Assembly (NCBI GenBank): GCA_010015655.1
Contig: ML976744.1
Span: 228,284-292,283, forward strand
DNA: 64,000 nt
Direction of reading: 5' to 3'
Origin: Bimuria novae-zelandiae CBS 107.79
Taxonomy: Eukaryota > Ascomycota > Dothideomycetes > Pleosporales > Didymosphaeriaceae
Each line of letters opens with the position of its first letter. Within the stretch, counting starts at the first letter, position 1. The notes beneath the pieces are model-generated. The model saw only the letters and a list, made by a program, of their open reading frames with translations, was not told the DNA's origin and did not search any database. Below, in pieces: positions 17,533 through 34,743 of this stretch. The position numbers and the translations under genes were made by a program.

Positions 17533-18410
17533 CTACATCCGTATGACCTCATCCTTGGTTGCTTCAGCGTATGTCGGAGGAGGCAGCACCACCTCCGTGT
17601 TATACTTTCCGACACCTTCAATGGTTTCCCCTGCAGATGAAAAGCCCTCCCCATCCAGCCGTTCTTCTTGTGCTTGTCCCTTGCTGTCCTCCGGACGTTT
17701 GTTCCTCCTCAGTCTCCATACTACAAATGCGATAACGATGGAAGTGACAATGGTCCCACACGTCAATCCTACTATTTTCCTCGTCCGCGCGATATCGCGC
17801 GCCTTAGCTTCATGGTCGAAGCCCGAGGGGATTTGATCGTTTGTATCATCGTCCTGGTCTCCGGATTCTGTTCCGCTGTTGCCACCTCCGGATTCTGTTC
17901 CGTTGTTGCGACCTCCAGATCCTGTTACGTTTGCCGTGCCTCCGGGCTTATCTCCTGGGCATAAACCGTGGTGTACAACATGGCCCTCAGGCGCTATTGT
18001 ATCACCCTGGCATCCAGATCTCTTACCATCAAACGATATGCCCCTCGGATATGTAGCGTTAAATATCCAGGGGTCTAATATTATTGCGTCCCGTGCGTCA
18101 TTTGTCCTCCCATTGGTACGCTTTCGGAGCGAGATGGGGAAGGGGACAGAGTAGTTCGAGTTAAAGACATTAGAATCGTAATCGAGGACAAGCATACAAA
18201 TGGCTGTGCCGCTCGTGCTTCCTGAGTTAGGGCCCATGCTGATTCGGGGAATCTGTATGCGTGTATTTGGCGAGATTGCTCGGGGACCTGGGAAGCCAAT
18301 CGACATTTCACCAAGCCATTTAAATTAATGCTCCATCTCCCAGAAGATAGGACTGAGAGTGCCGATGACAATACCTTTTGCTCCATTCACTATCTCCTTG
18401 GAGCTACCTG
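17533..18410 (-). pseudogene. 3' part (exons 2-3) of a membrane-protein gene split by LINE L3
   Basis: Exon 2 is 18407-18375 (33-bp microexon) and exon 3 is 18287-17533; the 87-bp intron 2 runs gtattg...ttcccag, phase 1. Encodes the end of an extracellular domain (CSSKEIVNGAKGPRAI...), a Gly/Ser/Asn/Asp-rich linker with NGTESG repeats and a single membrane helix (about TCGTIVTSIVIAFVVW) followed by RLRRNKR. A charged cytosolic tail ends in a PPPTY (PPxY) motif, a possible WW-domain ligand. Exon 1 lies 15.9 kb away at 34344-34743. Donor and acceptor phases agree (1, 1), giving an ancestral protein of about 395 aa. Unless the whole insertion is spliced out, the gene is dead. Confidence 0.8.
18400..18410 (+). 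repeat. Target-site duplication of L3, left copy
   Basis: GGAGCTACCTG, repeated exactly at 34273-34283. On the minus strand it reads CAG|GTAGCTCC, the acceptor of intron 1 of the split host gene plus the first bases of exon 2. Confidence 0.85.
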
Positions 18411-18469
18411 CACCTTCACCAACTTCTGAATTTTAAGAACCTGTTGAAATCTGTATATTTTTTATTAGA

Positions 18470-19259
18470 TTTAATCTTAAAATTACCTAAAACCTATCTC
18501 TACGCCATCCTCTGCCCCTGCAGTGCCTATAGCTAGTAAATGATAGCATAGAGACGCCTGCGAGACTCCCCCTAGAAGCCTCTATAGCAACCCGCCCCGC
18601 CAACCTAGAGTTAGCGAGGCACCTTAATATAAGCCACCCCTTAAGGAGATAGCTGTAGTAGCATGTAGTAGTAATACTATATCTTAACCTAGGTAGAGGA
18701 GTGCAGACCAGAAACGCGCTAGCTACTACTATAGTAACTAAAGCCCTAATAACCCACATCACGGCCGCCAAACAAGCTACCGCCACCTAGGAGGCTATAA
18801 TCTACACCCTAGCACAGGCTGTAGATAGCTACCTTAATGCCTATAAGCTCCCTAAAAAGTAGGTAGTCGCTAACGCCCTCTGCTAGCGCGTTATATAGGC
18901 CCTAAAAAACTATACTCTAGCGCTAAGCCTCTTGCGCATAGACTATACTAAGAGTATTAACACTAATGCTAGCACTAGTGCTAGCGATAGTAGCTATAAT
19001 TATAGCAAGGCTACGGGGCTAAGAATATAGGTAAACGTAGCTACTAGCGCGAACCCCTTAAGCACAGGGTACACTACCTCTAGTAGTAACTAGAGTAGCA
19101 CTAGGGCTACTACTAATAGACACACTTGCCGTAGTTAAAGCGATACTAAGGACCCTAGAATCCTTATTACCGTGCCTGCGCCGGAGCGGCTCTCACAGAG
19201 CTCACTATATGTAATTAGAAAGGCCATTTGCGACACGCTAGGCCTTAACCTTAGCGCTA
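18470..19259 (+). pseudogene. L3 ORF1, segment 1 (N-terminal/middle part, + strand)
   Basis: Read in the frame beginning at 18470 (positions congruent with 19256), the + strand gives a continuous protein broken only by TAG codons. It includes ...ITAAKQATAT, LAQAVDSYLNAYKLPKK, ALSLLRIDYTKSI, VPAPERLSQSSLYVIRK and AICDTLGLNLSA, which has the look of Tad-clade ORF1 proteins. It stops at the TA that flanks transposon A. The reading continues, in phase, at 27652 on the minus strand. Confidence 0.75.
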
Positions 19260-21395
19260 CCGTGTTTTATCAGATGACGCACAGCCATCACTTGGCGCAC
19301 GCTTACCGCCAAATTTTCGACTTCTTCACCCTCTCATAACTACACTAATATGGACCCAATTAAGGCTGCGTTAGAGTCGCTAAAATCGCTAAATCCTGGA
19401 GAAACACCTAATTACACTATAGTTGCGAAAAAGTATAGTTGTAATTAAATAACGCTGTTAAAGCGCCACCACGGGGTTTAAGGCACCTATACTTAGTGAA
19501 TTAATAATATACGCCTCCTTAATACTACGCAAGAGAAAGCTCTTATAACTTATATTAATAACTTTTGCTAACAAGGTCTACCACCTATAAGACAAATAAT
19601 ATAGAATTTCGCCTTAGAAATAGCTGGAAGAACTACTAAAAAATACTAGATTAACTACTTTATTGCTTAATATTATATTAACCTTATATTATATTAGAGC
19701 TCTAGTATGGACGCGTCACGGCATAAAGCTAATTTAGTATTTAAATATAGCCTCTACTTTAAGCTTTTAGCGTAGAAGATCGAATAGTATAACGTAGAAC
19801 CGTAATATATATATAATATAGACAAAAAAGGCTTCTTAATTAGGGTACTATTAAAGATAAAGCGCATCTTCTCCCGCCGAAGATATAAGAATGGTGGAGT
19901 AAAGCAAGTTATACAAGATAGTAATAGAAAGTAGATAATAATAATTATATATATTTGCGCCGACGGCAGTGCTCTTACGCTAACCTTAATTTACTAGGCT
20001 ATTTTTAGTAATATACAGGACTTATAGCTTTAAGATTTTAACCTATAAGAGCATAACTGTTTCTTTACTTCCTTAGCTAGTAGATGGACGAATAACAAGA
20101 TTAGCATATAATAGCTAAAACAAGTGTTTAATCGCGAGATAAAGGCAAAGGCGCGTCGCTCTTAGCGTCTCCTTATTCTTAATAGCCACGGCTCCTATAT
20201 AACAATAGAATTTATTAAGTATTATAATAAGAATTAAATTCTCCTAGCTATCTTTCCTCCTTACGCTACCTATACTCTCTAGCCACTTAATATTTACCTC
20301 TTTAAGCCTTTCTCTAGCGTATACTCTACCGAGCTTTTAGACTTTATATATAGCTATTAAGGCCTTACTTTTATTATAAAGCGCGACTTCTTTTGCATAT
20401 TCTATTACGCCTAGAATATAGCGTTTAAATATAAGATAATTATTAAGTCCTTTAAGGTTACTAGCCTCTCACCATTGAACGCAGAGGTAGTGTTATAAAA
20501 GTTTTAAAAGGTAGAAGCAGAGAGGCTATTATCCTTTAAAAATAGCTTGTTAGTACTTAGCGCTTTAGATTAGAGAAAGATAGAGCGCTTGCTACGCGAG
20601 GTTATTAAAAATACTTATTCTAAACACTTATAGTAGCTCTTTTAGATAATCTATTATATAGCCGTGCAGAAGTAGCTTCTCTAGCATAAAAATAACTGCC
20701 TTAAAGAAGCTCTTATTAATAAGAGAAAGCAGCAATAGCGTAATAAGCCTTTACTACTTAAAGCACTACTAGAGTATAATAGAGGCGCTATTCTCTAGTC
20801 GCCCGCCAAAGTCTAAGACGCCCGAGATAGGCAGGCGCAGAAGGATGCCGACGAGCAGTTGCAATAATAATAGAAGAAAGAGAAACTTGCTCTACAAAAA
20901 TAGTAGAAAGAATAGAAACAAGCCATGCTTAAGGAGAGGAAGCGTATAAGGCTTGCTGCTAAAGAAATCCGCCTCTAAGAGTAGCGTAGCAAGGCTACTA
21001 CGCGTAAAGAAGTACGTATTACACGCAAGGCTAAAAAATAACTCTAAAAAGATATATAATTATTCTAAAGGGGTACGAGACGTTAGCTAATCGCTTTTAC
21101 TACTTTATCTTATCTATATAAAGCGCCTAATATTACTAAGGTTGATTTCTCTTCTATTATTAATAAGGAGCCTACACTCGGCCCTAGCACGCGCATAAGA
21201 AATATACGCCTTCTATAGAGGTTTCGCATGTAAATTATTATAAGTAATTAATTGTTTAAGCTCCATAGACCTCTCCACTAGAAAATCTCGCGATAATAGC
21301 TCTTATATAGAGCTCTACAGCCTTAAAAGCAGTGGGTGTGGGCATCCGGAAATCGTGCGCCAAGTGATGCCCGTGCGTCATCTGATAAAACACGG
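19260..21395 (+). mobile_element. Fot1/pogo-like DNA transposon, copy A (2136 bp)
   Basis: Terminal inverted repeats of about 44 bp begin CCGTGTTTTATCAGATGACG at the left and are mirrored at the right; TA flanks at 19258-19259 and 21396-21397. The + strand from ATG 19350 encodes a decayed Fot1-type transposase: N-terminal psq HTH (MDPIKAALESLKSL...), CENP-B HTH, and DDE core with motifs resembling NIDKKGFLIRV, ICADGSALT, LLILNSHGSY and YTLQPLN. A Lys/Gln-rich C-terminus follows (about 20690-21060). The catalytic Asp codons appear partly changed to Asn, as RIP would do, and many TAG stops are present. Identical in length to copy B at 27655-29790, which lies in opposite orientation. Confidence 0.85.
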
Positions 21396-21397
21396 TA

Positions 21398-21588
21398 AGC
21401 TGTCCTAGGCTACCGCGGTTGCTACCTCTATTTTAGTACTTAGGGACGGGCGGTTAGCGTGCTTATAGGCCTAGCGACTGGCGTAGCGGTATGTGCCTAT
21501 CTCCCTCCTTATTAGCCTAATAACCTGCTTGTTAACTCGGCGAGGCGCTGCTAGGTAGTTAATATGCCTTACCTAATATAGGCTAAGA
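21398..21588 (-). pseudogene. L3 ORF1, segment 3 (C-terminal part, now inverted)
   Basis: Read on the minus strand it gives ...LAAPRRVNKQVIRLIRREIGT..., TKIEVATAVA, in the register that links segment 2 (27652-27112, via the two-base AC spacer between D and C) to segment 4 at 29793. It is flanked by TA of transposon C on one side and of transposon A on the other. Confidence 0.65.
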
Positions 21589-21590
21589 TA

Positions 21591-23693
21591 CCGTGCCTGA
21601 CGGGCTCGTGCACCGCGCGGGCTCGTGCACCAATACTAACATGCTCACCACTATAAAGATGAGGTTATTATAAGCGCTATAAAAGCGATTATCGCGAGAT
21701 TTTTTATTATAATTACTCCGTAGAGGCGTATAAATAAGTTATACTATCTAAGTTTTCGCGAGAGAGTGATTGCGCGACCGCGAGAGCTGACTTTAGGTAG
21801 AGGTGCTAGTGCAGCTTCTAGGGACGACGGATGAGCTGTAGCACCGCCCTTGGCTCGTTTTGGCTTGCGCTTTACTAGAGGTGCTTTTGAAGCTTTGCGC
21901 TTGCCTCTTTAGGTAATTGTAGAGGCCTGCCTAGTGTTTTGAGCAGCTTTTCTGGCATCCTGGGTAGCCACCTGTTTGGCCTTTATCTGATCTCGCACCT
22001 CCTTGGCTCTCTCTCTTGCTACACGACGCTCCTCCTTCTCTTGCTCCTTGAGGAGCTTGGCAGTAGCTTAAAGCTCCTTTCTGTTTAACTTTGCTAGTCT
22101 CTCCTGCTCTTCTTAGTATTGCTTTTCTGCCTTACGCTCACGTGCTCGCTTGAACTTAGAGGGCGACTAGAAAGTAGCACTACCGTGGTACTCCTCCTCG
22201 CGCTATAAATTAAGAGGCTTGCCAGCGTTCTTACGCTGCTTCTTAGTAGTAAGAGCATCCCTTAGGCCACTGTTCTTATAGTGTAGTAGCTCGTTTTGAA
22301 CCTGAAGTTAGTGTAGCGTTTGGGAGAGCTTCTGCGAGGTCTCTACCGAGGTATCCTTTACTGCAGCACGTATGAGACGCTCTATCTGCCTCCAGTCCTT
22401 AGGCAAAAGGGCTAAGAGCCGTGCCTTACTCTTATTATTGTCCTGTTTGCGGAAACGCTTAAGTACGACGTCAGCCTTTATAGGGGCTATACTAGTGGCT
22501 TTAAACGCCTTAAGGACGAGTTTTATTATAAACGTAGACTTCTAAGCACCCTAGAATAGCGGGAAGAAGTCTCCCTTTTAGATAGCTAGCAACCCTTACG
22601 TTTTAAAGAGGTAATTAGTAAGCTTAGCAGAGTAGTTGCTGCTAAGAGGTTTAAAGCAAACTATATTAAGAGGCTATAGTGTATAGGTTAAGTAAGGGGG
22701 AAACACGGCTAGCAGTATTTTATAAGCCTCGCAGTATTTAATAAAGTCTATTAAAAGGTGGCTACTGTGGCTATTAAGTATAAGAAGGCGCTAAGCTTAG
22801 CTAAGGCGTGCTTTTTACTTTATTTCGCGGTTAAAAACCTGCTCTAACTAGGCTAATCTAATATTATTATTCGTCTATCCTGTTAGTGAGGAGCTTACAA
22901 ACACACTATGCTTTCCTGCTTTAATTTAAGCTACTTATAAGGCTTGAAGTGTGCAGTTAGCTAATAAGTATATAAGGGCTAGTAACAAAACACTCCTATC
23001 TACTTTAATAGTTGTTATAACTATTACCTACTCTTAAGAGCTATCTTAAAGCGCTGTTTAGACCTTCTTTTCCTCCTATTAAAGCTAACTAAACACCCGT
23101 TTTAAGCGTCCTGTAATACTAATTATAAAGCCCTTTTCATCCATATTGTAGGTATTATAAGGCTCTACCTTATACTAAACAATCTTATAATATAAAAGGT
23201 TAAAGTATAACTTATACTTGCGTTATAAGTTAGCCTAGTAGCGTATAACGTCTATGCTAGCGCTCTATTTAGAGATAAGATAGTTGTAGTTACGGTTAAT
23301 AAAACGCGAAACCTAGCCCTCTCCAACATGCTTTTTTAATATATTAGACGCGAAATTTTATATCATAGCTCTCGTAGGAGGTAGCCCACGAGCCGTAAGC
23401 CCTCTAATATACTCCACGAGTCCCTCCTCTTGTTATAGGCTAAGTAGTTATTACGCGGCGTACCCGGCTGCCTAAGGGCCTGTCTGGTGGTTCCACCTTC
23501 GGCTAAGTGTTAAATGCGATACACCATATTTTTTCGCGATACCCTAGATACTGAAATTATCGCCAGCTTCACGCGATTCTAAATCTGCAATCGCCTTGTC
23601 AATTGGTGCCATGGTGGTGTAGTTATCGCGTGTTGAAAAAGTCGAGATGGACGCGTTGTTTGGTAGGGTGGTGCACGAGCCCGTCGGGCACGA
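21591..23693 (-). mobile_element. Fot1/pogo-like DNA transposon C (2103 bp), distinct family
   Basis: Inverted termini of about 24 bp, CGTGCC(T/C)GACGGGCTCGTGCACC-like, with TA at 21589-21590 and 23694-23695. The transposase is on the minus strand and begins at ATG 23612 (MAPIDKAIADLES..., IAKKYGVSHLTLSRRW: a psq-type HTH). Its Lys/Glu/Arg-rich C-terminal end lies at about 21780-22170. The middle is AT-rich and stop-riddled. Termini and protein differ from copies A/B, though all share the end CGTG and TA target, so this is a separate Fot1-like family. Dead by RIP. Confidence 0.75.
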
Positions 23694-23699
23694 TAGTTA

Positions 23700-26600
23700 T
23701 CGGTGCTTTGCAAAAGACCGTCCCGACCCACTCTGGGCGCTTGTTAGGTAATCGCTTCCCCACTTTCATTGTCGCTCATACAAAATTATATGAGAGACGA
23801 TGTAATTAAGGAAATTATACTAACTTTTCTTATTACTAGAGTTCTGTATAGTATGCTAATTAATCCTAAGAGGTCTATAAGCTATAGACTATAAGCGTTA
23901 ATAGTGCAGGCGATTATTAAGCGCATAAAGACAAGGTAAAAAAACCACGAGATTTATAGATCTCTTAGAGTTAACACTAAAACTATGTGGAAATACTAAC
24001 TTAATCTAGAAGTGTTTAGTTAGCCATACCCTCCGCGATATATTAAAATTAGTTAGCCACTATCGCTGTGTTAATGCTATAAAGACGCCCTGTTAGAGTT
24101 CCTACGGGGTAAACCTATAGCATATCTCGATGAGATGCAGGCCTTCTTGTGCGACGACTTCGACTTACAGGTGTCGATAGCCACTATTACGAGATTTCTC
24201 GCTGGCATAAGGTGGAGTCAAAAAGCTGCGTTAAAAGCTATTAGGGAGCGCTATAAAGGCCTTCGTTGGGTGTTTCGTGCACGCTGCTAATAAATATATA
24301 AACTAGAGTAGGTTGTTTGCCTCGACGAGAGTGCCTGTAATGAGAGAACCGGCGATAGAAAGTATGCCTGGTTACCTATAAACACGCTGGCAGACGTATA
24401 ATACTTAGCGTAACGCACGGAGAGGTGGAGCTTGCTCCTTGCCATAGATATAGACGGTTACGTTAATTATGTCCTATACTAAGGAGCAATCACTGTAGAT
24501 TTAATAGAGGAGTTTTTAGTAAATAAAGTACTCTCTTATTGCAATCCTTAGCTAGGTAAACGATTAGTAATAGTCCTTAATAATGTCTTTATCTATAGGT
24601 TAGAAAAGATCGTCTTATTATGCGCGGAGGCGGGCGTTATACTTAAATATTTACTACTATACTCGCCGGATTTTAACCTAATTAAGCAGACCTTTAAGGC
24701 GTTAAAAAACTAGATAAAAAAGCACTACGAACGCGCTTATACGTATAAGGATTTTGCTTACTTCTTAGAGGAGGTAGTATAGAATATATACTATAATTAG
24801 GTAGAATCCGCGCGAGGATTCTTTAAGTTCTATAGGTAGGTGCCGTAGGTGCTAGATAAGGTATAACACTAAAGGATTAGTGTCTATAATAATATCGCGG
24901 AGGTTACTAAAAGTTACCCGCTATTATTTAAAACTTTAGCTTTAATAGCTAGAGAAGGTGTAACTAATGTCGCTGAATTAATTAATATTATCTATTTTAC
25001 GATATCTATTATAGGTAAAGAGTTATAAAGGGAAAGATATTATTAGCGTGGATAAAGTATAGTGTTTTTAGTAGGTCTTAGCGCCTTTATAAGTAATTTT
25101 ATTACTAGACAGGCGCGCGTACGCGTGGACTTAGTTAAATTTTAATTAGAAAATGGCCTGTGCGTAGTGTATAGAACCTTTTCGCTAACGTCGCTAGCTC
25201 TCTATACTAAATTATCTCTCTCCCTACGTAACCTCTCACGCTGTTTACGCTCCTAATCCTCTTTATATATGTCTACGGCACCCTCCTTATCGCTCTCTAT
25301 AAGTCTATTATACCCAGATTGCCATCGAATCGCCATCCTGCGAAGGCGGAGGAGTAACAGCACTAGTAATATAAAATGCTACTCCTATATAGCGTATGGC
25401 ATCCCCGCGTTAGACAGATCTATTAGCATATTAAGGTTAATTTGCCCCTGTTAAATAACGTTATTAAACACCTAATTAATTTTAGGTAGCTCTCTAGCTA
25501 GTGCTTAGTTTTTCTACTAGTTAAAGAAGTGCTAAGTTTAATAGGCAAGCTCTATTGTGTTTTTATAAGTTAAGTCTTGCTATGCTAACGTTAAAAAGCT
25601 CCTTAAGGTCGTAGACGGCGTCTTAACCTATTATTATTAGCTAATAATTTGACTTTATGCTAACTGGCTTATAGAGAGAGAGCTGGCGGCGATAACCTTT
25701 ATAAAGTTGTCTATATTAAGCTTGGATCTGGCACCTTTTTTGGCTAATTTCTGCGACGCCTTCTCCTTTGCAGACCTCTCTTTGGCCAGCGAGAGACTTA
25801 GGCGTATATTGTCATGTGGCTTGTTGACTATACACCTGCCCTTTGTTATATCGCGCGCCTATGCCGCCACTATAGTGCTACTCGCCAGGTAATAGTTCTT
25901 GAAACGATTAGGTTACCTAGGCGTACGTTTAACCTAGCACACGTATAGATAGTTGCTATAGTAGGTATCCTAGCATCGCCATTAATTACGTATAGCGACT
26001 ATAGGGCCCTTGCTAACAGCAGTATGTGCGAGGACTTTTAGTAGGTTATATAACTAGCGCTAAGTTATAGTAAGTCGCGGTAAAGAGCTCTAAGAGCTCT
26101 GCGAGCTAAATACCCCCCTATTACGCGTCTAATTATTTTGGCTAGTTTCTAGCTTTAATAGCGTTAAATTAAAGTTAACGTAAGTTATCTTAGTAATAGA
26201 CTCCTCCTTTAACTTATACGCGCGCTTAACGACCTATATAAAGGTAACGCTGTTGCTACGTTTAAGAGACTACGTAAGTCTTTATTACTTAGGTATCTAT
26301 AGTATATATACGACTGCGGTTAAGTTTTTTACTATAGTTTTAATAGGGGGAGTTGACTCTAAGAGGTCTTGTATAATATTATCTACCTACTGCTAGAGCT
26401 CTGCGTAGAAGTACGTACGTATCCTTATTTTAGTATTAAAATTAGTCCTAACTTCCTCCTTGCGTAGGAACGCGCGCTAGCGATAGGTAACGTATAGCTT
26501 AACTTTATATAATTCTAGTAATTTGTTAAATACCCCCTTATTACACGTTTAGCTATTATTATTAATCTCTAGTAGCGGCGTTAGCGTATTAACTTTACTA

Positions 26601-27109
26601 AAAATTAAAGCCTGCTCGTTATTATTAAATACCCCCCTATTACGCGAATGCTCTTTCTCTAGCGACGTAGGCCTCTAAGCTAACTAAGGTTCTTTGTCCT
26701 CGAGGTAATTATTAACGTATATATGAAAGTCGTCGTCGTTAACGCCCTCTAGTAGAGGTTGTTCCTCCTCTGTAGGTCCTTCCTCCTCTATGCCGGCAAA
26801 TTGTACGACGGCCAGGGGTGCCCTTATTAATAGGGCTTTTTTTGGCGCCCTGCGCTTCCTTAGAGGGTTGCGGCTAGCGTTAAACACCTGTTTTGCCTTC
26901 CTTTTGCGGGTACTCGGCATAATACATTCACTACACGGTAACTAACTGCCTTTATACACCTCGTAGAAAGTTGATTTTCCTGTATTACATCGTCTCTCAT
27001 ATAATTTTAGGTGTAGGGCGATGAAAGCGGGGAAGCGATTACCTAAAAAGCGTGCAGCCACTCAGAAACTCGCCCCAAGTGGGTCGGGACGGTCTTTTGC
27101 AAAGCGTTA
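23700..27109 (+). mobile_element. Tc1/mariner-type transposon D (3.4 kb) with two opposed reading frames
   Basis: Inverted termini of about 100-120 bp with one internal indel: GCTTTGCAAAAGACCGTCCC at 23705 and its complement ending at 27105, plus a second matched block containing the complement of ATTATATGAGAGACGATG. TA flanks at 23698-23699 and 27110-27111. The + strand at about 23820-25080 encodes a DDE_3-type transposase with CLDESACNERTGDRKYAW, LLAIDIDGYVNYV, VIVLNN (formerly VIVLDN), LLYSPDFNLIKQTFKALKN. A second, opposite-strand frame fills about 25270-26920. Only 4 bp longer than TA-GT-TA separates it from C. Confidence 0.75.
25270..26920 (-). pseudogene. Second reading frame of transposon D, basic DNA-binding-like protein
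   Basis: Starts at ATG 26920 with a nuclear-localisation-like basic N-terminus (STRKRKAKQ, NPLRKRRAPKK) and an acidic stretch (EEEGPTEEEQPLLEG). The first 78 codons (26920-26684) are intact. Downstream the frame is repeatedly stopped by TAG, but recognisable segments persist, including LSLAKERSAKEKASQKLAKK at about 25810-25740. The short motif N(R/K)GVF recurs three times, at about 26647, 26548 and 26126 (DNA pattern AATACCCCC on the + strand). I do not recognise the family. It may be an accessory protein of D or the remains of an older insertion inside D. Confidence 0.45.
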
Positions 27110-27111
27110 TA

Positions 27112-27652
27112 GCGCACTACACTAGATAGGTGCATCCTAAGCCTAGGGGGCCTGTATAGTCCTCTTATTTCTTACTATAGTTGTTACAGCGAGGGAGGCG
27201 CACGCATTTTAGTAGGTTATAGTAGCCCTAGTAGCCTAGGTCGTGTCGTTATATAGCTAGGGTCTTAATAATCTCCTTTAAGGCGCTACTATTACCTAGG
27301 AGCCTAAATTATCGCACTTTCTTTATAAAGGAGATAATCTAGGTAATAGTTCCGTCTTTATTAGCGCCATGCCTTAACTATCTATAGTTAGTAGGCAGTG
27401 AGCCTGTCTGTATAGCTGCCTTATCCTCTATTATGTCGTGTATAACTAGCACCTCTAGGCCTAGCAAGGATTAGTACGCGCTAGGGACGTTAGGTATAGT
27501 ATAATTAAACTATTTTTATAGTAGCTTAGCTATGCTACCTCTTATAGCGCTTATTATTAAATCTTTCTTTCCTTGTTCTATAAGGCTGTCTCTTATCTTG
27601 TTATTGGCGGGGGTGACGGCCCATCCTGTCCTGATCTTTAAGGCGCTAGGTA
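27112..27652 (-). pseudogene. L3 ORF1, segment 2 (middle part, now inverted)
   Basis: On the minus strand from 27652 the frame gives SALKIRTGWAVTPANNKIRD, SLIEQGKKDLIISAIRG, LLGLEVLVIHDII, TNYR.LRHGANKDGTIT, LLKCVRLPRCNNYSKK, YLV.CAN. The RTGWAVTP block is typical of Tad-type ORF1 proteins. Stops are TAG/TAA at former CAG, CAA or TGG. It joins segment 1 in phase through the TA target of transposon A/B (GLNLSA + IPSALKIRTGWAV). Confidence 0.75.
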
Positions 27653-27654
27653 TA

Positions 27655-29790
27655 CCGTGTTTTATTAAATGACGCACGGGCATCACTTGGCGCACGATTT
27701 CCGGATGCCCACACCCACTGCTTTTAAGGCTGTAAAGCTCTATATAAGAGCTATTATCGCGAGATTTTCTAGTAGAGAGGTCTATAGAGCTTAAATAATT
27801 AATTACTTATAATAATTTATATGCAAAACCTCTATAGGAGGCGTATATTTCTTGTGCGCGTGCTAGGGCCGGGTATAGGCTTCTTATTAATAATAGAAGA
27901 GAAATCGACCTTAGTAATATTAGGCGCTTTATATAGACAAGATAGAGTAGTAGAAGTAATTAGCTAACGTTTCGTACCTCTTTAAGATAATTATATATCT
28001 TTTTAGAGTTATTTTTTAGTCTTACGTGTAATACGTGCTTCTTTACGCGTAATAGCCTTGCTACGCTGCTCCTAGAGGCGGATTTCTTTGGCGGCAAGCC
28101 TTATACGCTTCCTCTCCTTAAGCATGGCTTGTTTCTATTCTTTCTGCTACTTTCGTAGAGCAAGTTTCTCCTCCTTCTATTATTATTATAACTGCTCGTT
28201 GGCATCCTTCTGCGCCTGCCTATCTTGGGCGTCTTAGACTTTGGCGGGCGACTAGAGAACAGCGCCTTTATTATACTCTAGTAGTGCTTTAAGTAGCAAA
28301 GGCTTGCCACGCTATCGCCGCTTTCTCTTATTAATAAGAGCTTCTTTAAGGCGGTTATTTTCGTGCTGGAGAAGCTACTTCTACATAGCTATATAATAGA
28401 TTATTTAAGAGAGCTACTGCGAGTGTTTAGAATAAGTATTTTTAATAATCTTGCGTAGTAAGCGCTCTATCTTTCTTTAATTTAAAGCGCTAAGTACTAA
28501 TAAGCTACTTTTAGAGGACAATAGCCTCTTTGCTTTCGCCTTTTAAAACTTTTATAACACTACCTCTGCGTTTAATAGTGAGAGGCTAGTGACCTTAAAG
28601 GACTTAATAATTATCTTATATTTAAACGCTATATTCTAGGCGCGATAGAATATGCGGAAGAAGTCGCGCTTTATAATAGAGGTAAGGCCTTAATAGCTAT
28701 ATATAAAGTCTAAGAGCTTGGTGGAGTATGCGCTAGAGAGAGGCTTAAAGAGGTAAACGTTAAGTAGCTAGAGAGTATAAGTAGCGTGAGGAGGAAAGAT
28801 AGCTAAGAGAATTTAATTCTTATTATAATACTTAATAAATTCTATCGTTATATAGGAGCCGTAGCCGTTAAGGATAAGGAGACGCTAGGAGCGACGCGCC
28901 TTTACCTTTATCTCGCGATTAAACACTTGTTTTAGCTATTATATGCTAATCTTGTTGTTTGTCTATCTACTAACTAAGGAAGTAAAGAAACAGTTATACT
29001 CTTATAAGTTAAAATCTTAAAGCTATAAGTCCTGTATATTACTAAAAATAGCCTAATAAATTAAGGTTAGCGTGAGAGCACTGCCGTTGGCGCAAATATA
29101 TATAATTATTATTATTTACTTTCTATTACTATCTTGTATAACTTGCTTTACTCCACCATTCTTATATCTTCGGCGGGAGAAGATGCGCTTTATCTTTAAT
29201 AGTACCCTAATTAAGAAGCCTTTTTCGTCTATATTATATATATATTACGGTTCCACGTTATACTGTTCGATCTTCTGCGCTAAAAGCTTAAAGTAGAGGC
29301 TATATTTAAATGCTAAATTAGCTTTATGCCGTGACGCGTCTATACCAGAGCTCTAATGTAATATAAGGTTAATATAATATTAAGCGATAAAGTAGTTAAC
29401 CTAGCATTTTCTAGCAGTTCTTCTAGCTATTTCTAAAGCGAAATTCTATATTATTTGTCTTATAGGCGGTAGACCTTGTTAGTAAAGGTTATTAATATAA
29501 GTTATAAGAGCTTTCTCTTGCGTGGTGTTAAGGAGGCGTATATTATTAATTTGCTAAGCATAGGTGCCTTAAACCCCGTAGTAGCGCTTTAATAGCGTTA
29601 TTTAATTATAACTATACTTTTTTATAACTATAGTGTATTTGGGTGTTTCTCTAGGATTCAGCGATTTCAGCGACTCTAACGCAGCCTCAATTGGGTCCAT
29701 ATTGGTGTAGTTATGAGAGGGTGAAGAAGTCGAAAATTTGGCGGTAAGCGTGCGCCAAGTGATGGCTATGCGTTATCTGATAAAACACGG
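27655..29790 (-). mobile_element. Fot1/pogo-like DNA transposon, copy B (2136 bp), inverted relative to A
   Basis: Same length and termini as copy A but in opposite orientation, with TA at 27653-27654 and 29791-29792. The transposase start (complement of the MDPI... codons) is at about 29700-29692 and the Lys-rich C-terminus at about 28020-28300. A and B differ by scattered C/T and G/A changes (for example GACGCACAGCC against GATAACGCATAGCC near the termini), consistent with independent RIP mutation. Short frames such as 29072-29296 are by-products. Confidence 0.85.
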
Positions 29791-29792
29791 TA

Positions 29793-32700
29793 CCAGAGCT
29801 CCGTGATGGCCTATATAGTGCCCCTGCTGCCTCTAGCTTACATTTAGCAGGCGCAGCAACAACGCTAGTAAACGCTAATAAGTAATGTAACCTAGGAATA
29901 GAGGCGTTAATAAGGCCCTCTACTCGCCTATAACGCTCTACTTATATCCCTAGGAACCTAAATCTGGCGGAGATGTCGGCGCGCAGCGTTACGCCACCTT
30001 AAGATTATATAGCTTTATTCTTATTAGAGAGAGATATAAGTATAAGTAACAAGAATAATCTCTTATATTAAGCACACCCTTATAAAGATAAAGGACTCCC
30101 CTTAGGGAGCGTAATATACAGGTTAGCTAGATAAATATAAGGCGAAGCTCGCCTAGCTATATTACGGCCCTAGAACTCGCTTTTTAAGAAGGTATTAACG
30201 TAGTATATATATAGGAGCTGGCCACGTGGCCTGGCACTCGCACCTTAAACTACCTAAGCTACTAGCTATACTTACTTATTAATAGCTAAGACGACCCCTA
30301 GTATAGGAAGATATAGAAACCTAGAGTTCTTATCTACACGCTAAAAGGCGCATAGCTCCACATTACGACTATAGCGCCCTTGTAGGACAGGGATAGATAA
30401 TGGATTTAGGTTAACAGGGTCTCTATCCTTAATATCTATAGGCAGCCTCAGACCACACTAGTCCTAGAGTATATTATAGGCCTTACCCCCCTAGCAAGAT
30501 GCCTAGTGGGGGGAGACTTTAACACTAAGCACGATATATTTAAGCCTAGTATTATTATCTTATAAGGCGGCGCCGAGCTTGCGCGCTAGGCTATAGTTAG
30601 CGGCATAGACTATATTAGAGAACCTGGTAGAGCTACCTATAGAGCTGGCCACGTCCTAGACCTTAGCTTCTTTAATATTACCTTTACTAAAATAGAGGTG
30701 CGCGACGACCTGCACTACAGCTTTAATTACGCTACTTTAGTTACAATACTACTAGGTAGAGGCACACTAAGCCGCGAATAATATCGCCTTAGGCTTCTTA
30801 GAAAGAAGCTTCTTCCCTTTACCTGGCTAGTCGTAATAGGTATGCTATAGCTACCCTCGATAGCAATAGCCTCTAATCTACGCTAGGTAGAAAAGTGCGC
30901 TGCAGCGCTAACCTTATTACTTTAAAATACTTTACGCAAAACTAGCTGCCTAAAAAGGGATAGTAGGAAGGCGGCACCTTAGTAGATAAATAAGTATGCT
31001 AACGCTAGGCGCCTGCACCTTAAGTCTAAACAAGGCTATATAGGCACCTAGACCCTAGAGACTCGCAGCTTTCTAACTATAGTAAGAAAGGCTAAGAGAT
31101 AATACTAGTAATATACTATTAATAGCGCAAAGGAGGACTCTAACCTCTTTTAAATTATAGGCTAGCACAAGCTAGAGCTAATAAGACTAGACCCGCCGCT
31201 GGCCTACGAGGGGCGCTATATTACTAACCCGTAAAAGAAAGCGGAGACGCTTAGACAAGCAATACTCTACTATTTTAATAATAATAATAACCTACTAAAG
31301 GCTCTAGAACCTAACGTTTAAGGATTGCAGGGCTATTACGCCCTCCCTTAGGACCTATATCTTTCTCTTAAAGAGGTTAAGCGTAATATAATAGGAGTCT
31401 TAAGCACCTTACCTAGTATAGATAGAATTATTATCTGCATGCTTACCGCATGCTAGCACTATATCTAGACGTATCTTATTAGCCTATACTAGCACTATTT
31501 AGCCCTTAGCTACTTCTCCTACGCGTGGAGGGTTATAGAGGTCGTTATAATACCTAAGATAGGCAAAAAGGACAAATCCTCCCCTAGATTATAGAGACCT
31601 ATCGCCCTGCTATCCTGCCTTAGTAAGGGCCTAGAGAGAATTTTAGCAAGGAGATTTGCCAGCACTACTATAGCATACGGCATACTAAGCCCCTAATACA
31701 GGGGGGCTCTCCCTAAGAGATTAGCTATAGACCTAGTAGCCGCCTTTATATATAACGTAGAGGACGCCTTCTCCAACGGCTAGCACGTTACTATAGTTAC
31801 TATAGACGTCTAAGGCGCCTTTAACGCACTTCTTAAAAATTAACTTCTATATAGAATAAAGGCCTAAGGATAGCATAATAGCGCCCTCCTAATTATAAAA
31901 AACTTCCTCTAGGACCGTCGCGTCCAAGTGCGATTAGGAGAAGCCACTACAGCGCCCTACCTAGTATAGTGCGGGATGCCGCAGGGCTTACTACTATTAC
32001 TAGTGCTATACATACTTTATCTAGTAGAGCTACTTTAGCAAGACCCTACTAGGCACTTTAGGTATATAGACAATATCTGCCTCTATAAGCAATCCCACTC
32101 CCTAGACCAGAACGTGGAAATGCTGGCAGAAGATATAGGCGCTATAAATTCCTAGGGAGACGCTAATTACGTGGCATTTACCCTAGAAAAACTCGAAATA
32201 ATACACCTAACTAAGTAGAAAAGTGACTATTTACTACTTATCTAGATTAATAATTAGCTTATCCTCTAACCTATACTACTAAATAAGGCGCTACGCTAGC
32301 TAGGTGTTTACTTTAATAAAAAGCTTAATTTTAAAACATACGTTGTTACCTATATAGCCAAAGGACGCGTAGTTACATAGTACATCTACAGCCTTGCTAG
32401 AATCTAGCATAGCCTACTAGCTAGCTCACTGCGTAAAGCAGTAATCTTATGCGTACTGCCACGCCTACTATATAGAAATAAGGCCTAGTATGGAGGGCGC
32501 ACAAAGCCCCCTAAGATTATAAGAGCTGCGCAGAACTAAAAGGTTAGCACATGACTTAGGTGGCATATCGCCGCCCTAGAAAAGGCCCTTACGATAGCGG
32601 TTAAAGGCGTCGTCCCCGCCTATCGCACCACGCCTACTACCACGCTGTATAGAGACGTAGGCATTTCCTTAGTAGCTATAGCGCTTAAAGAGTGCAAGGC

Positions 32701-33850
32701 GAGGTTCGCTATATACCTACACTATATTAATAAAGGTCACCCGCTTACAGCGCGCACGTAACTAACCGTAGTATATAAAGGAAGAGGCGCTAGACGCCTA
32801 TAGCGCCTATATATAAAAGTTTAACTACTCGCACAGCTATTCGCACTAGTACTCCGCCCTATACTACTATAATCGCACTATTCTAACTAGTGCTAAATAG
32901 ACCCTATAAATAATAAGCCTAAAAAGCTCGCTACTAAAGAATTTAAACAATGGTGGATAAGCCTACCTATTAAGATAATCACAGTGTTCTCAGACGGCTC
33001 GGAACAGCGCACAGAAAACGGCGAGCGCCACGTAACCTATAAATACGCTGTGTACCAGGGCTAGAGTCTGTTGTACACAGGCAAAGGCTCCCTTAACACG
33101 TAGGCCTACGTCTTTAACGCAGAAGTAGTAGGGGCCTAGAGAGGTCTTTAACACGTGCTATAGACTTAGGCGCACCGCCTAAGCCAGATCTGAATGTGTG
33201 TAGATAGCACATTAGTTATTTAGGGCATTAGGGGAGACCCCGCGCCGTTATCCTAGTGGGCCTTTATATACTACTAGGAAGCTATAGACACCTAGGATAT
33301 TTAAATCTAATAGTTACTAGGCTACATAGGTATTAAAGGCAATAAGCTAGCTAATTAGCTAGTAGATAAAGTAGCTAAGGACCCACGCCTACCTACAAGG
33401 AAGGTAGCTAACCCTATAATATTAGGTCTATAATTTAATGCGCGCGCATACGTACGCGCTGTATAATAAGAGTAGTAACGTATACGCACACTAAATCTCT
33501 CTACATGGTATAACTAGTAGGGCCTAGCATACACCCCCTCCAGGCAACCGCCAGAGCTGGAGCTCACACGCCCCGCCCTGGCCAAGCTCCTATCCATAAG
33601 GACAAGACACGGCAACTACGCCTGGTACTATAGGAAGTTTAAGCATAATGAGGAGACCCTCACGTGCACCTGTGGAGTAGACCTGGCCCTAGACTATATT
33701 ATACACTGCCCACGGACAGTGCGACGCTTTAACTATTAGCTACAACGCCTAACACATCCCCTAATAAATACTAGAGAAGGAATATAGTACCTTAAGGCGC
33801 TAAGCCTAGGAGAATACGTAACCCTTCTTACACTTAGTATTAATAATAGT
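29793..33850 (+). pseudogene. L3 ORF1 end (segment 4) and ORF2 (endonuclease / RT / RNase H), nonsense-riddled
   Basis: 29793 to about 29990 continues ORF1. ORF2 then shows an endonuclease domain with LVGGDFNTKHD (about 30505) and AGHVLDLSFFN (about 30645). Reverse transcriptase follows with IPKIGKKDKS, RPIALLSCLSKGLERILARR (about 31560-31660), TIDV.GAFNAL (about 31800), CGMPQGLLL (about 31970) and RYIDNICLY (about 32060, where the usual YIDD reads YIDN). RNase H starts at about 32970 (VFSDGSEQRTENG) and a finger CTCGVDLALDYIIHCPRTVRRF lies at about 33665-33730. Register is maintained with many TAG codons. It is a different LINE lineage from L1/L2. Confidence 0.8.
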
Positions 33851-34252
33851 ATATATTAGTAAGTAACTAGCTAACTACGTTATAAGCGAGCGGACGTAAA
33901 CCCTTACTTTAGGTAAAGTAAATACACTACCTGCTTATAACTTACTAAGGTATCTACTATATAAGACTTAGCTCTCTCTTTTGTATACCTATATGCGTGT
34001 ATATATCTTTTCTTACCTTTAATAAGTCTTGGCATGCTTCTGTACAGGACTAGGGGCAGCTAGAAGGCCACCCCTTTTTCTACTATTATCACATAAAGGC
34101 CAGATTAAATAGCTAAGTCGCCCCTATCTAGAGAGGGACAGCAGCAAGAGAGGCCGCTCCTATAGCAGCGGTAGCACTAGCATGAGTGGCCCTTACTAAG
34201 TGCAGGGCACGTCTACATACCCCCTGGGAGGTTACATAGGACGTAAAACCAA

Positions 34253-34270
34253 TACTACTACTACTACTAC
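34253..34270 (+). repeat. (TAC)6 3' tail of L3
   Basis: Six TAC units immediately before the right target-site duplication, the short-repeat 3' end usual for I/Tad-clade LINEs. L1 has AATC units in the same position. Confidence 0.75.
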
Positions 34271-34272
34271 TC

Positions 34273-34743
34273 GGAGCTACCTGTATGACTTGTTAGTCGT
34301 GGTCAAACCGAGGTTGGGATTCACACGGAAGCTAATAACTTACATTTTTTGTTGTCTTGATAGATGGTGCCCGATGTTGACGGGGTACAGTAGCGACAAG
34401 CCATGCCCACGATCTTATCGTCAGTCGTATCCCAGGACAGTTGGATGAAATCCCCAAACATCACCACATTGTCTTCGAACCCGAATGGCGCGAACTGATC
34501 CGACCCATCTGTTGATAACTCTGCACGCTGGTAATCATTCAGATTCCATGCTGCGCTGGAAATAATGTCATTGCCCCATTCGAATGTGGAGTTGCCATTG
34601 CGTGGGTGTTCGTAGCTATATTTTGAACCCAACTCAGCGTTGTAATCGGAAATAAACGCTCGATCCAGGGCGCTCGGGAAGGTCCACGATGAGGTGGCAA
34701 GGGGCGCGACGTTACCCGGCCACATGGAAGTCGCATAGGCCAT
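34273..34743 (-). pseudogene. 5' part (exon 1 and intron 1) of the membrane-protein gene split by L3
   Basis: Exon 1 is 34743-34344 (133 codons plus 1 base), ending NKK at a gtaagt donor. Intron 1 ends ...cgactaacaagtcatacag, and its cag acceptor lies in the 11-bp duplication at 34283-34273. The encoded domain looks extracellular (NVAPLATSSWTFPSALDRAF, NNNEFEWGND-like Asn/Trp-rich stretch, FGDFIQLSWDTTDD, ACRYCTPSTSG). The ATG gives MAYATSMWPGN..., which is not a clear signal peptide, so an upstream exon or altered start is possible. Transcription would run from here into L3 in antisense, giving a truncated product ending shortly after the acceptor. Confidence 0.75.

What the first reader, a model, noticed from the sequence alone, without database searches (positions are those of the whole stretch)
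18411..34272. Inversion between two inverted 2136-bp Fot1-like copies recorded by the reading frame of the LINE they sit in
Copies A (19260-21395) and B (27655-29790) are the same length and in opposite orientation. L3 ORF1 pieces read + (to 19259), - (27652-27112), - (21588-21398), + (from 29793). Flipping the segment between A and B and removing A, B, C and D, each with one TA, restores a single frame: GLNLSA joins IPSALKIRTGWAV, then CAN joins the inverted third piece, then DSL joins PELRDGL. Four independent junctions in phase are hard to explain by chance. Established: inverted repeats recombine to invert the interval.
Basis: partly seen in the sequence, partly recalled or inferred. Interest (0 to 1): 0.88.

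Follow-up and report, generated by a model that had tools for sequence, protein, structure and literature searches.

The report
Transposon pair flipped a retrotransposon's middle
Inside one dead retrotransposon, a 6.3-kb middle stretch lies backwards between two opposite-facing copies of the same DNA transposon, likely flipped by recombination between those copies before a likely repeat-mutating genome defence scarred them; it is a well-preserved example of a known kind of rearrangement.

Summary
One LINE insertion (L3, 18411-34272), with an 11-bp target-site duplication at its ends, carries four TA-inserted DNA transposons (A, B, C, D), and the interval between A and B is inverted. Other L3 copies in the same genome prove it at DNA level: 41 of 43 scorable clusters keep the pieces in the predicted order on one strand, with junction gaps of 2, 6 and 2 bp as predicted (26 of 32, 37 of 37, 23 of 25).

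The best mechanism is homologous recombination between A and B, opposite full-length copies of one family. The crossover cannot be placed: 24 family copies differ almost only by RIP-type transitions. RIP load is correlated along a copy, and A and B look unswapped for crossover points at 475-1300 of 2136. This weakly favours an inversion older than RIP and weakly disfavours a misjoin there; outside that range the test is weak or reversed. A locally similar A/B stretch (538-674, 3rd of 276 pairs) points the other way.

The kind of event is known. Reads were not available, so misassembly is unlikely but not excluded.

The parts
18400..18410 (.). L3 target-site duplication, left copy (GGAGCTACCTG)
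   Evidence: exact 11-bp match with 34273-34283
18411..19257 (+). L3 piece P1 (5' end and start of ORF1)
   Evidence: colinear with P2-P4 in other genomic copies
19258..19259 (.). TA target duplication, left of A
   Evidence: sequence; other L3 copies have 2 bp here
19260..21395 (+). Transposon A, Fot1/pogo-like, 2136 bp
   Evidence: inverted repeat with B; DDE_1 E 4.2e-8, HTH_Tnp_Tc5 below cut-off; family in genome
21396..21397 (.). TA target duplication, right of A
   Evidence: sequence
21398..21588 (-). L3 piece P3, inverted
21589..21590 (.). TA, left of C
   Evidence: sequence
21591..23693 (-). Transposon C, a second Fot1/pogo-like family
   Evidence: DDE_1 E 1.2e-8, HTH_Tnp_Tc5 E 1.8e-5; terminal inverted repeats; family in genome
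23694..23695 (.). TA, right of C
   Evidence: sequence
23696..23697 (-). 2-bp L3 scrap between C and D (AC in LINE sense)
   Evidence: the eight other copies shown have the TA, two bases and TA/TG/AA-type hexamer between P2 and P3; window has the two bases between C and D
23698..23699 (.). TA, left of D
   Evidence: sequence
23700..27109 (+). Transposon D, DDE_3 transposase, 3.4 kb
   Evidence: DDE_3 E 2.3e-13; terminal inverted repeats; family in genome
27110..27111 (.). TA, right of D
   Evidence: sequence
27112..27652 (-). L3 piece P2, inverted
27653..27654 (.). TA, left of B
   Evidence: sequence
27655..29790 (-). Transposon B, same family as A, opposite orientation, 2136 bp
   Evidence: 93% to A without gaps; DDE_1 E 1.2e-6, HTH_Tnp_Tc5 at cut-off
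29791..29792 (.). TA, right of B
   Evidence: sequence
29793..34272 (+). L3 piece P4 (rest of ORF1, reverse-transcriptase frame, ACT-repeat tail)
   Evidence: RVT_1 E 1.1e-10
34273..34283 (.). L3 target-site duplication, right copy

Best explanation
The interval 21398-27652 inside a single L3 insertion lies in inverted order between two opposite-facing copies (A, B) of one Fot1-like transposon, and the inversion was most likely made by homologous (ectopic) recombination between A and B while they were still near-identical, probably before RIP mutated them. Inferred course: L3 inserted; A and B landed at TA sites with 738 bp of L3 between them, in opposite orientation; D and C landed at two TAs 2 bp apart between them, before or after the flip; A and B paired and crossed over, which turned the interval round and left both elements full-length; RIP-type mutation then hit the copies independently. 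Shown: single insertion, ancestral order, inverted interval, exact boundaries, A and B as one family, RIP-type differences. Inferred: crossover as the mechanism, its timing, RIP as the process, and the fungal host.
For: Ancestral order from the genome's own L3 copies, 41 of 43 clusters colinear, gaps as predicted (from; independently on the fetched loci). One target-site duplication round the whole. Breakpoints lie at A and B, ungapped full-length copies in opposite orientation. No L3 base is missing or doubled at the junctions beyond the TAs. P1 is continued at the inner side of B and P4 at the inner side of A, which is the exchanged-flank pattern described for recombination between opposite copies (PMC3355041, passages seen). 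The family was near-identical before mutation: 534 of 547 variable columns are two-state C/T or A/G, so A and B offered over 2 kb of homology. RIP loads of the two parts of a copy correlate (r 0.52 and 0.65 at the 537/674 split, 21 copies), and A and B fit better unswapped at 20 of 22 trial breakpoints; for breaks 475-1300 only 2-10% of swapped control pairs reach the observed value.
Against: No crossover footprint can be shown. Timing is weak: at breaks 1750 and 1825 the RIP-load test is reversed, at 250-400 and 1375-1675 8-27% of swapped controls reach the observed value, and its controls are called right in only 61-80%; control pairs share copies and are not independent. A and B are unusually alike at 538-674 (score 3rd of 276 pairs, one of the two higher pairs being a near-duplicate), which could mean exchange after mutation, although the 109-bp identical run there is of average length for the family (mean 109.3 over 276 pairs). 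The RIP polarity of the L3 pieces does not decide the order of events (lnL -8.48 against -8.52). No raw reads; 5 of 53 loci hold N runs.
Confidence: 0.8

Rival explanations
1. Assembly artefact: the assembler crossed from A to B inside an identical run and so flipped the interval; the real genome has the uninverted order.
For: A and B share an exact run of 109 bp. 5 of 53 fetched loci hold runs of N (585 to 1277 bases), so the assembly may be scaffolded from short reads, though withheld stretches also read N. A shared stretch at 538-674 could come from collapsed reads.
Against: No N in the 64-kb window. A and B have 149 differences in 2136 bp. A misjoin would leave the halves swapped; the RIP-load test prefers them unswapped for breaks 475-1300, which includes the 109-bp run (swapped controls reach it in 3% at break 550 and 6% at 625).
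Confidence: 0.08
2. The inversion was made by transposase acting on ends of A and B together (alternative transposition), not by homologous recombination.
For: Both breakpoints lie at complete elements with TA on each side; the family was active, as it has many near-identical copies.
Against: A and B are full-length, ungapped, each with both ends and TA, and no L3 base is lost or gained at any junction; aberrant transposition is expected to leave footprints or a new target at one end (recalled, no call).
Confidence: 0.05
3. Homologous recombination between A and B, but after RIP, with the exchange at about 538-674 of the element.
For: A and B are mutually most alike there: 8 differences in 66 variable columns at 534-801; segment score 3rd of 276 pairs.
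Against: RIP loads left and right of that stretch fit the unswapped pairing (lnL difference 1.83; 2.22 and 1.30 at 550 and 625). The copies were then only 93% alike.
Confidence: 0.25
4. The inverted pieces come from another L3 copy, or from 5' inversion at the time of L3 insertion (twin priming), not from an inversion of this copy.
For: L3 is a LINE, and LINE insertions can show 5' inversions (recalled, no call). One other non-colinear cluster exists (C114).
Against: P2, the 2-bp scrap and P3 fill exactly the gap between P1 and P4 without overlap or loss; both ends of the inverted interval lie at A and B; the inverted part is internal, with P1 in normal orientation.
Confidence: 0.01

Closest known systems
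Inversions by ectopic recombination between opposite transposon copies in Drosophila, e.g. BuT5 and Galileo (PMC3355041, passages seen)
   Same: Inverted segment bounded by two copies of one element in opposite orientation, with flanks exchanged.
   Different: There the proof is exchanged target duplications and species comparison; here the duplication is only TA, and the surrounding LINE supplies the exchanged flanks. The interval is 6.3 kb inside a dead element, not a chromosomal inversion with genes.
Transposon-mediated recombination in fungi (PMC4112212 and PMC3562529, passages seen; an Aspergillus niger case cited in a passage of PMC3441728)
   Same: Same-family copies in fungal genomes act as recombination sites; inversion is named as an outcome.
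   Different: In the passages seen these are recombination signals, solo LTRs and unequal target sites, not a single inversion resolved to the base pair.
Inversion polymorphism between inverted repeats, e.g. the Saccharomyces chromosome XIV flip/flop region (PMC9731477, passages seen)
   Same: A segment between kilobase inverted repeats that exists in two orientations.
   Different: There the repeats are homogenised within strains; here they have been driven to 93% identity by RIP-type mutation, which likely froze the orientation.
Inversion of insertion sequences by TIR-TIR recombination in Wolbachia (PMC3004938, abstract seen)
   Same: Inverted repeats of DNA transposons recombine and turn round what lies between.
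   Different: There the element itself is inverted; here the DNA between two elements is.

Membership tests
[quoted passage not shown]
   A and B, 2136 bp each, 93% identical, opposite
[quoted passage not shown]
   41 of 43 L3 clusters colinear, exact gaps
[quoted passage not shown]
   L3 flanks are exchanged; the TA duplication itself is palindromic and says nothing
[quoted passage not shown]
   No marker: A-B 148 transitions, 1 transversion; similar stretch 538-674 against unswapped RIP loads
Fot1/pogo-like Tc1-mariner elements (A, B, C) | DDE_1 transposase and Tc5-type DNA-binding domain | tested here: met
   DDE_1 above cut-off in A, B and C; HTH_Tnp_Tc5 above cut-off in C, at it in B, below it in A; stops read as X
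Fot1/pogo-like Tc1-mariner elements (A, B, C) | Terminal inverted repeats and TA target duplication | tested here: met
   51-nt arms in A and B with TA included, 26 nt in C; TA both sides
LINE / non-LTR retrotransposon (L3) | Reverse transcriptase and endonuclease frame, target duplication of variable length, simple 3' tail | tested here: met
   RVT_1 E 1.1e-10; Exo_endo_phos_2 only below cut-off (E 0.0053); 11-bp duplication; ACT tail
LINE / non-LTR retrotransposon (L3) | Clade (e.g. Tad1) | not tested
   no tree was built
RIP (repeat-induced point mutation) | C-to-T/G-to-A changes only, CpA preference, confined to repeats | tested here: met
   534 of 547 variable columns are two-state C/T or A/G; CA+TG contexts 252 of 534, CG 106; RIP index +0.95 to +2.27 in eight repeat parts, -0.53 and -0.43 in two flanks. 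The process itself was not tested

The most novel reading that the evidence does not exclude
RIP acted as a latch. A transposon burst left identical inverted copies that could flip the DNA between them for a short time only, until RIP made them too unlike to recombine and froze one orientation for good. The LINE around them keeps the record, so such dead loci can time rearrangements against the burst and against RIP, genome-wide, from one assembly.
Probability: 0.43. Interest if true: 0.5.

Novelty: new member of a known kind. Interest (0 to 1): 0.38.

Why it matters
Inversions between opposite transposon copies are usually inferred from a few base pairs of exchanged target duplication or from species comparisons. 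Here a high-copy LINE serves as a built-in ruler, so one assembly is enough to prove the ancestral order. RIP load, which is correlated along a copy, may serve as a second internal clock that says whether halves of a repeat were swapped after mutation, and it doubles as a check on misassembly. If both hold up genome-wide, rearrangements in RIP-bearing fungi could be counted and placed before or after RIP.

Tried and rejected
RIP polarity of the L3 pieces as a clock: no power (window lnL -8.48 against -8.52; on 11 intact copies differences of -0.4 to 2.2). The first frames tried for P1 and P4 gave no Pfam match; the three frames of P4 were then scanned apart. C114, the only other non-colinear L3 cluster, was checked for a shared target duplication: no exact match of 7 bp or more in the two short stretches compared; left unresolved.

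Paper searches: eight (one search found none). Passages were seen of six papers and the abstract of a seventh. In these listings and passages I saw no inversion recorded by a LINE and dated against RIP; the library is partial, so this is no claim that none is in print. Organism identity was not pursued; 'fungus' is inferred from Fot1-like elements and the RIP-type pattern.

Rows dropped: one search leaves out two short hits (a 71% row and a 54-bp row). leave out six distant L3 copies (L027, L029-L033) and the window's own locus L009. leave out L042 as a near-duplicate of L041. The A-family alignment holds 24 of the 28 places that cover at least 2048 bases at 92% or more; itself scored 40 of 722 candidates.
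Full report
What is there. Bases 18411-34272 are one LINE insertion (L3) interrupted by four DNA transposons. Its outer ends share an exact 11-bp duplication, GGAGCTACCTG, at 18400-18410 and 34273-34283. Its last bases are an ACT repeat, as in the other copies shown (one of the six drifts to a GAC repeat). P4 carries a reverse-transcriptase frame (RVT_1, E 1.1e-10). A and B are Fot1/pogo-like (DDE_1 in both), C is a second such family, and D has a DDE_3 transposase. The eight repeat parts have positive RIP indices (0.95 to 2.27), and two flanking stretches negative ones (-0.53, -0.43).

Check of the observation. Each L3 piece was searched alone in the same genome. Grouping hits within 12 kb gave 52 clusters, 43 with two or more kinds of piece; 41 of the 43 are in the order P1-P2-P3-P4 on one strand. 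The gaps are 2 bp between P1 and P2 in 26 of 32 (the other six 2.4-9.0 kb), 6 bp between P2 and P3 in 37 of 37, and 2 bp between P3 and P4 in 23 of 25. Discounting A, B, C and D with one TA each and flipping the A-B interval predicts 2, 6 and 2. The 6 bp correspond to TA-AC-TA in the window: D sits in one TA, C in the other, and the AC survives between them at 23696-23697. This proves the ancestral order to the base pair without any reading frame. Four other copies carry 24 to 27 stops in their least stop-rich frame over 498-499 codons.

Mechanism. The inverted interval starts and ends at A and B, opposite, ungapped, full-length copies of one family. Recombination between opposite transposon copies inverts the DNA between them and exchanges their flanks (PMC3355041, passages seen). 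Here P1 is continued at the inner side of B and P4 at the inner side of A: exchanged flanks on a kilobase scale. No base of L3 is lost at a junction, which argues against end-joining and against aberrant transposition (inference). The nesting order agrees with age: the window's L3 piece P4 differs from 23 other copies by 0.16% transversions (159 of 98393), while all pairs in the A family differ by 0.05% (299 of 588687); the two measures are not built alike.

Timing and crossover. In 24 aligned family copies, 534 of 547 variable columns are two-state C/T or A/G, and A and B differ by 148 transitions and 1 transversion. Before mutation they were nearly the same sequence, so no marker swap can show the crossover. 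I used another property: the RIP loads of the two parts of a copy are correlated (r 0.52 and 0.65 at the 537/674 split, 21 copies). If the exchange came after RIP, the present halves should match better when swapped. They match better as they are at 20 of 22 trial breakpoints. For breaks 475-1300, 2-10% of swapped controls reach the observed value; for 250-400 and 1375-1675 it is 8-27%; at 1750 and 1825 the sign is reversed. Controls are called right in 61-80%. So the test speaks weakly for an inversion older than RIP if the exchange lay in the first half or so, and an exchange near either end is not excluded. Against the early date stands a stretch at 538-674 where A and B are unusually alike, 3rd of 276 pairs, although the 109-bp identical run inside it is of average length. 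The L3 pieces themselves have no power on this question. I put about 0.65 on the inversion being older than RIP.

Assembly. No N lies in the window, but 5 of 53 fetched loci hold N runs, so the assembly may be scaffolded; withheld stretches also read N. A misjoin at 475-1300 of the element, including the 109-bp run, would leave swapped halves, which the RIP-load test disfavours. Raw reads were not available; I leave 0.08 for artefact.

Novelty. The kind of event is established. What is good here is the resolution: a LINE as ruler and, more tentatively, RIP as clock in one assembly. I file it as a new member of a known kind, interest 0.38. The boldest reading, RIP as a latch that froze an otherwise reversible inversion, is not excluded (0.43).

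Noticed in passing
window 23700-27109: Element D is 3.4 kb with its DDE_3 transposase in the left half on the + strand; none of its six frames gave another Pfam match, so the content of the right half is unexplained.
   Followed up: no
window 21591-27109; G000 C24:575640-581172 and C8:1363076-1368816: Families C and D lie 6 bp apart here (TA, 2 bp, TA) and 18 and 35 bp apart at two other places (from coordinates), which hints at a shared taste for the same spots or for each other's ends.
   Followed up: no
G000 C114:166628-171167 (L054-L056): The only other non-colinear L3 cluster: a 5'-truncated P4 on the - strand joined head to head to P1-P2 on the + strand, with 4 bp of overlap. Could be a 5'-inverted insertion or two copies; no shared target duplication found.
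   Followed up: partly
G000 C92:185428-189392: A D copy ends at the base where an L3 P1 piece begins: D has inserted into another L3 copy too.
   Followed up: no
L041 and L042: Two A-family copies share nearly all their RIP-type mutations over 23-1828 (segment score 112.6 against 14.9 for the next pair), so one was copied, or the segment duplicated, after mutation.
   Followed up: no
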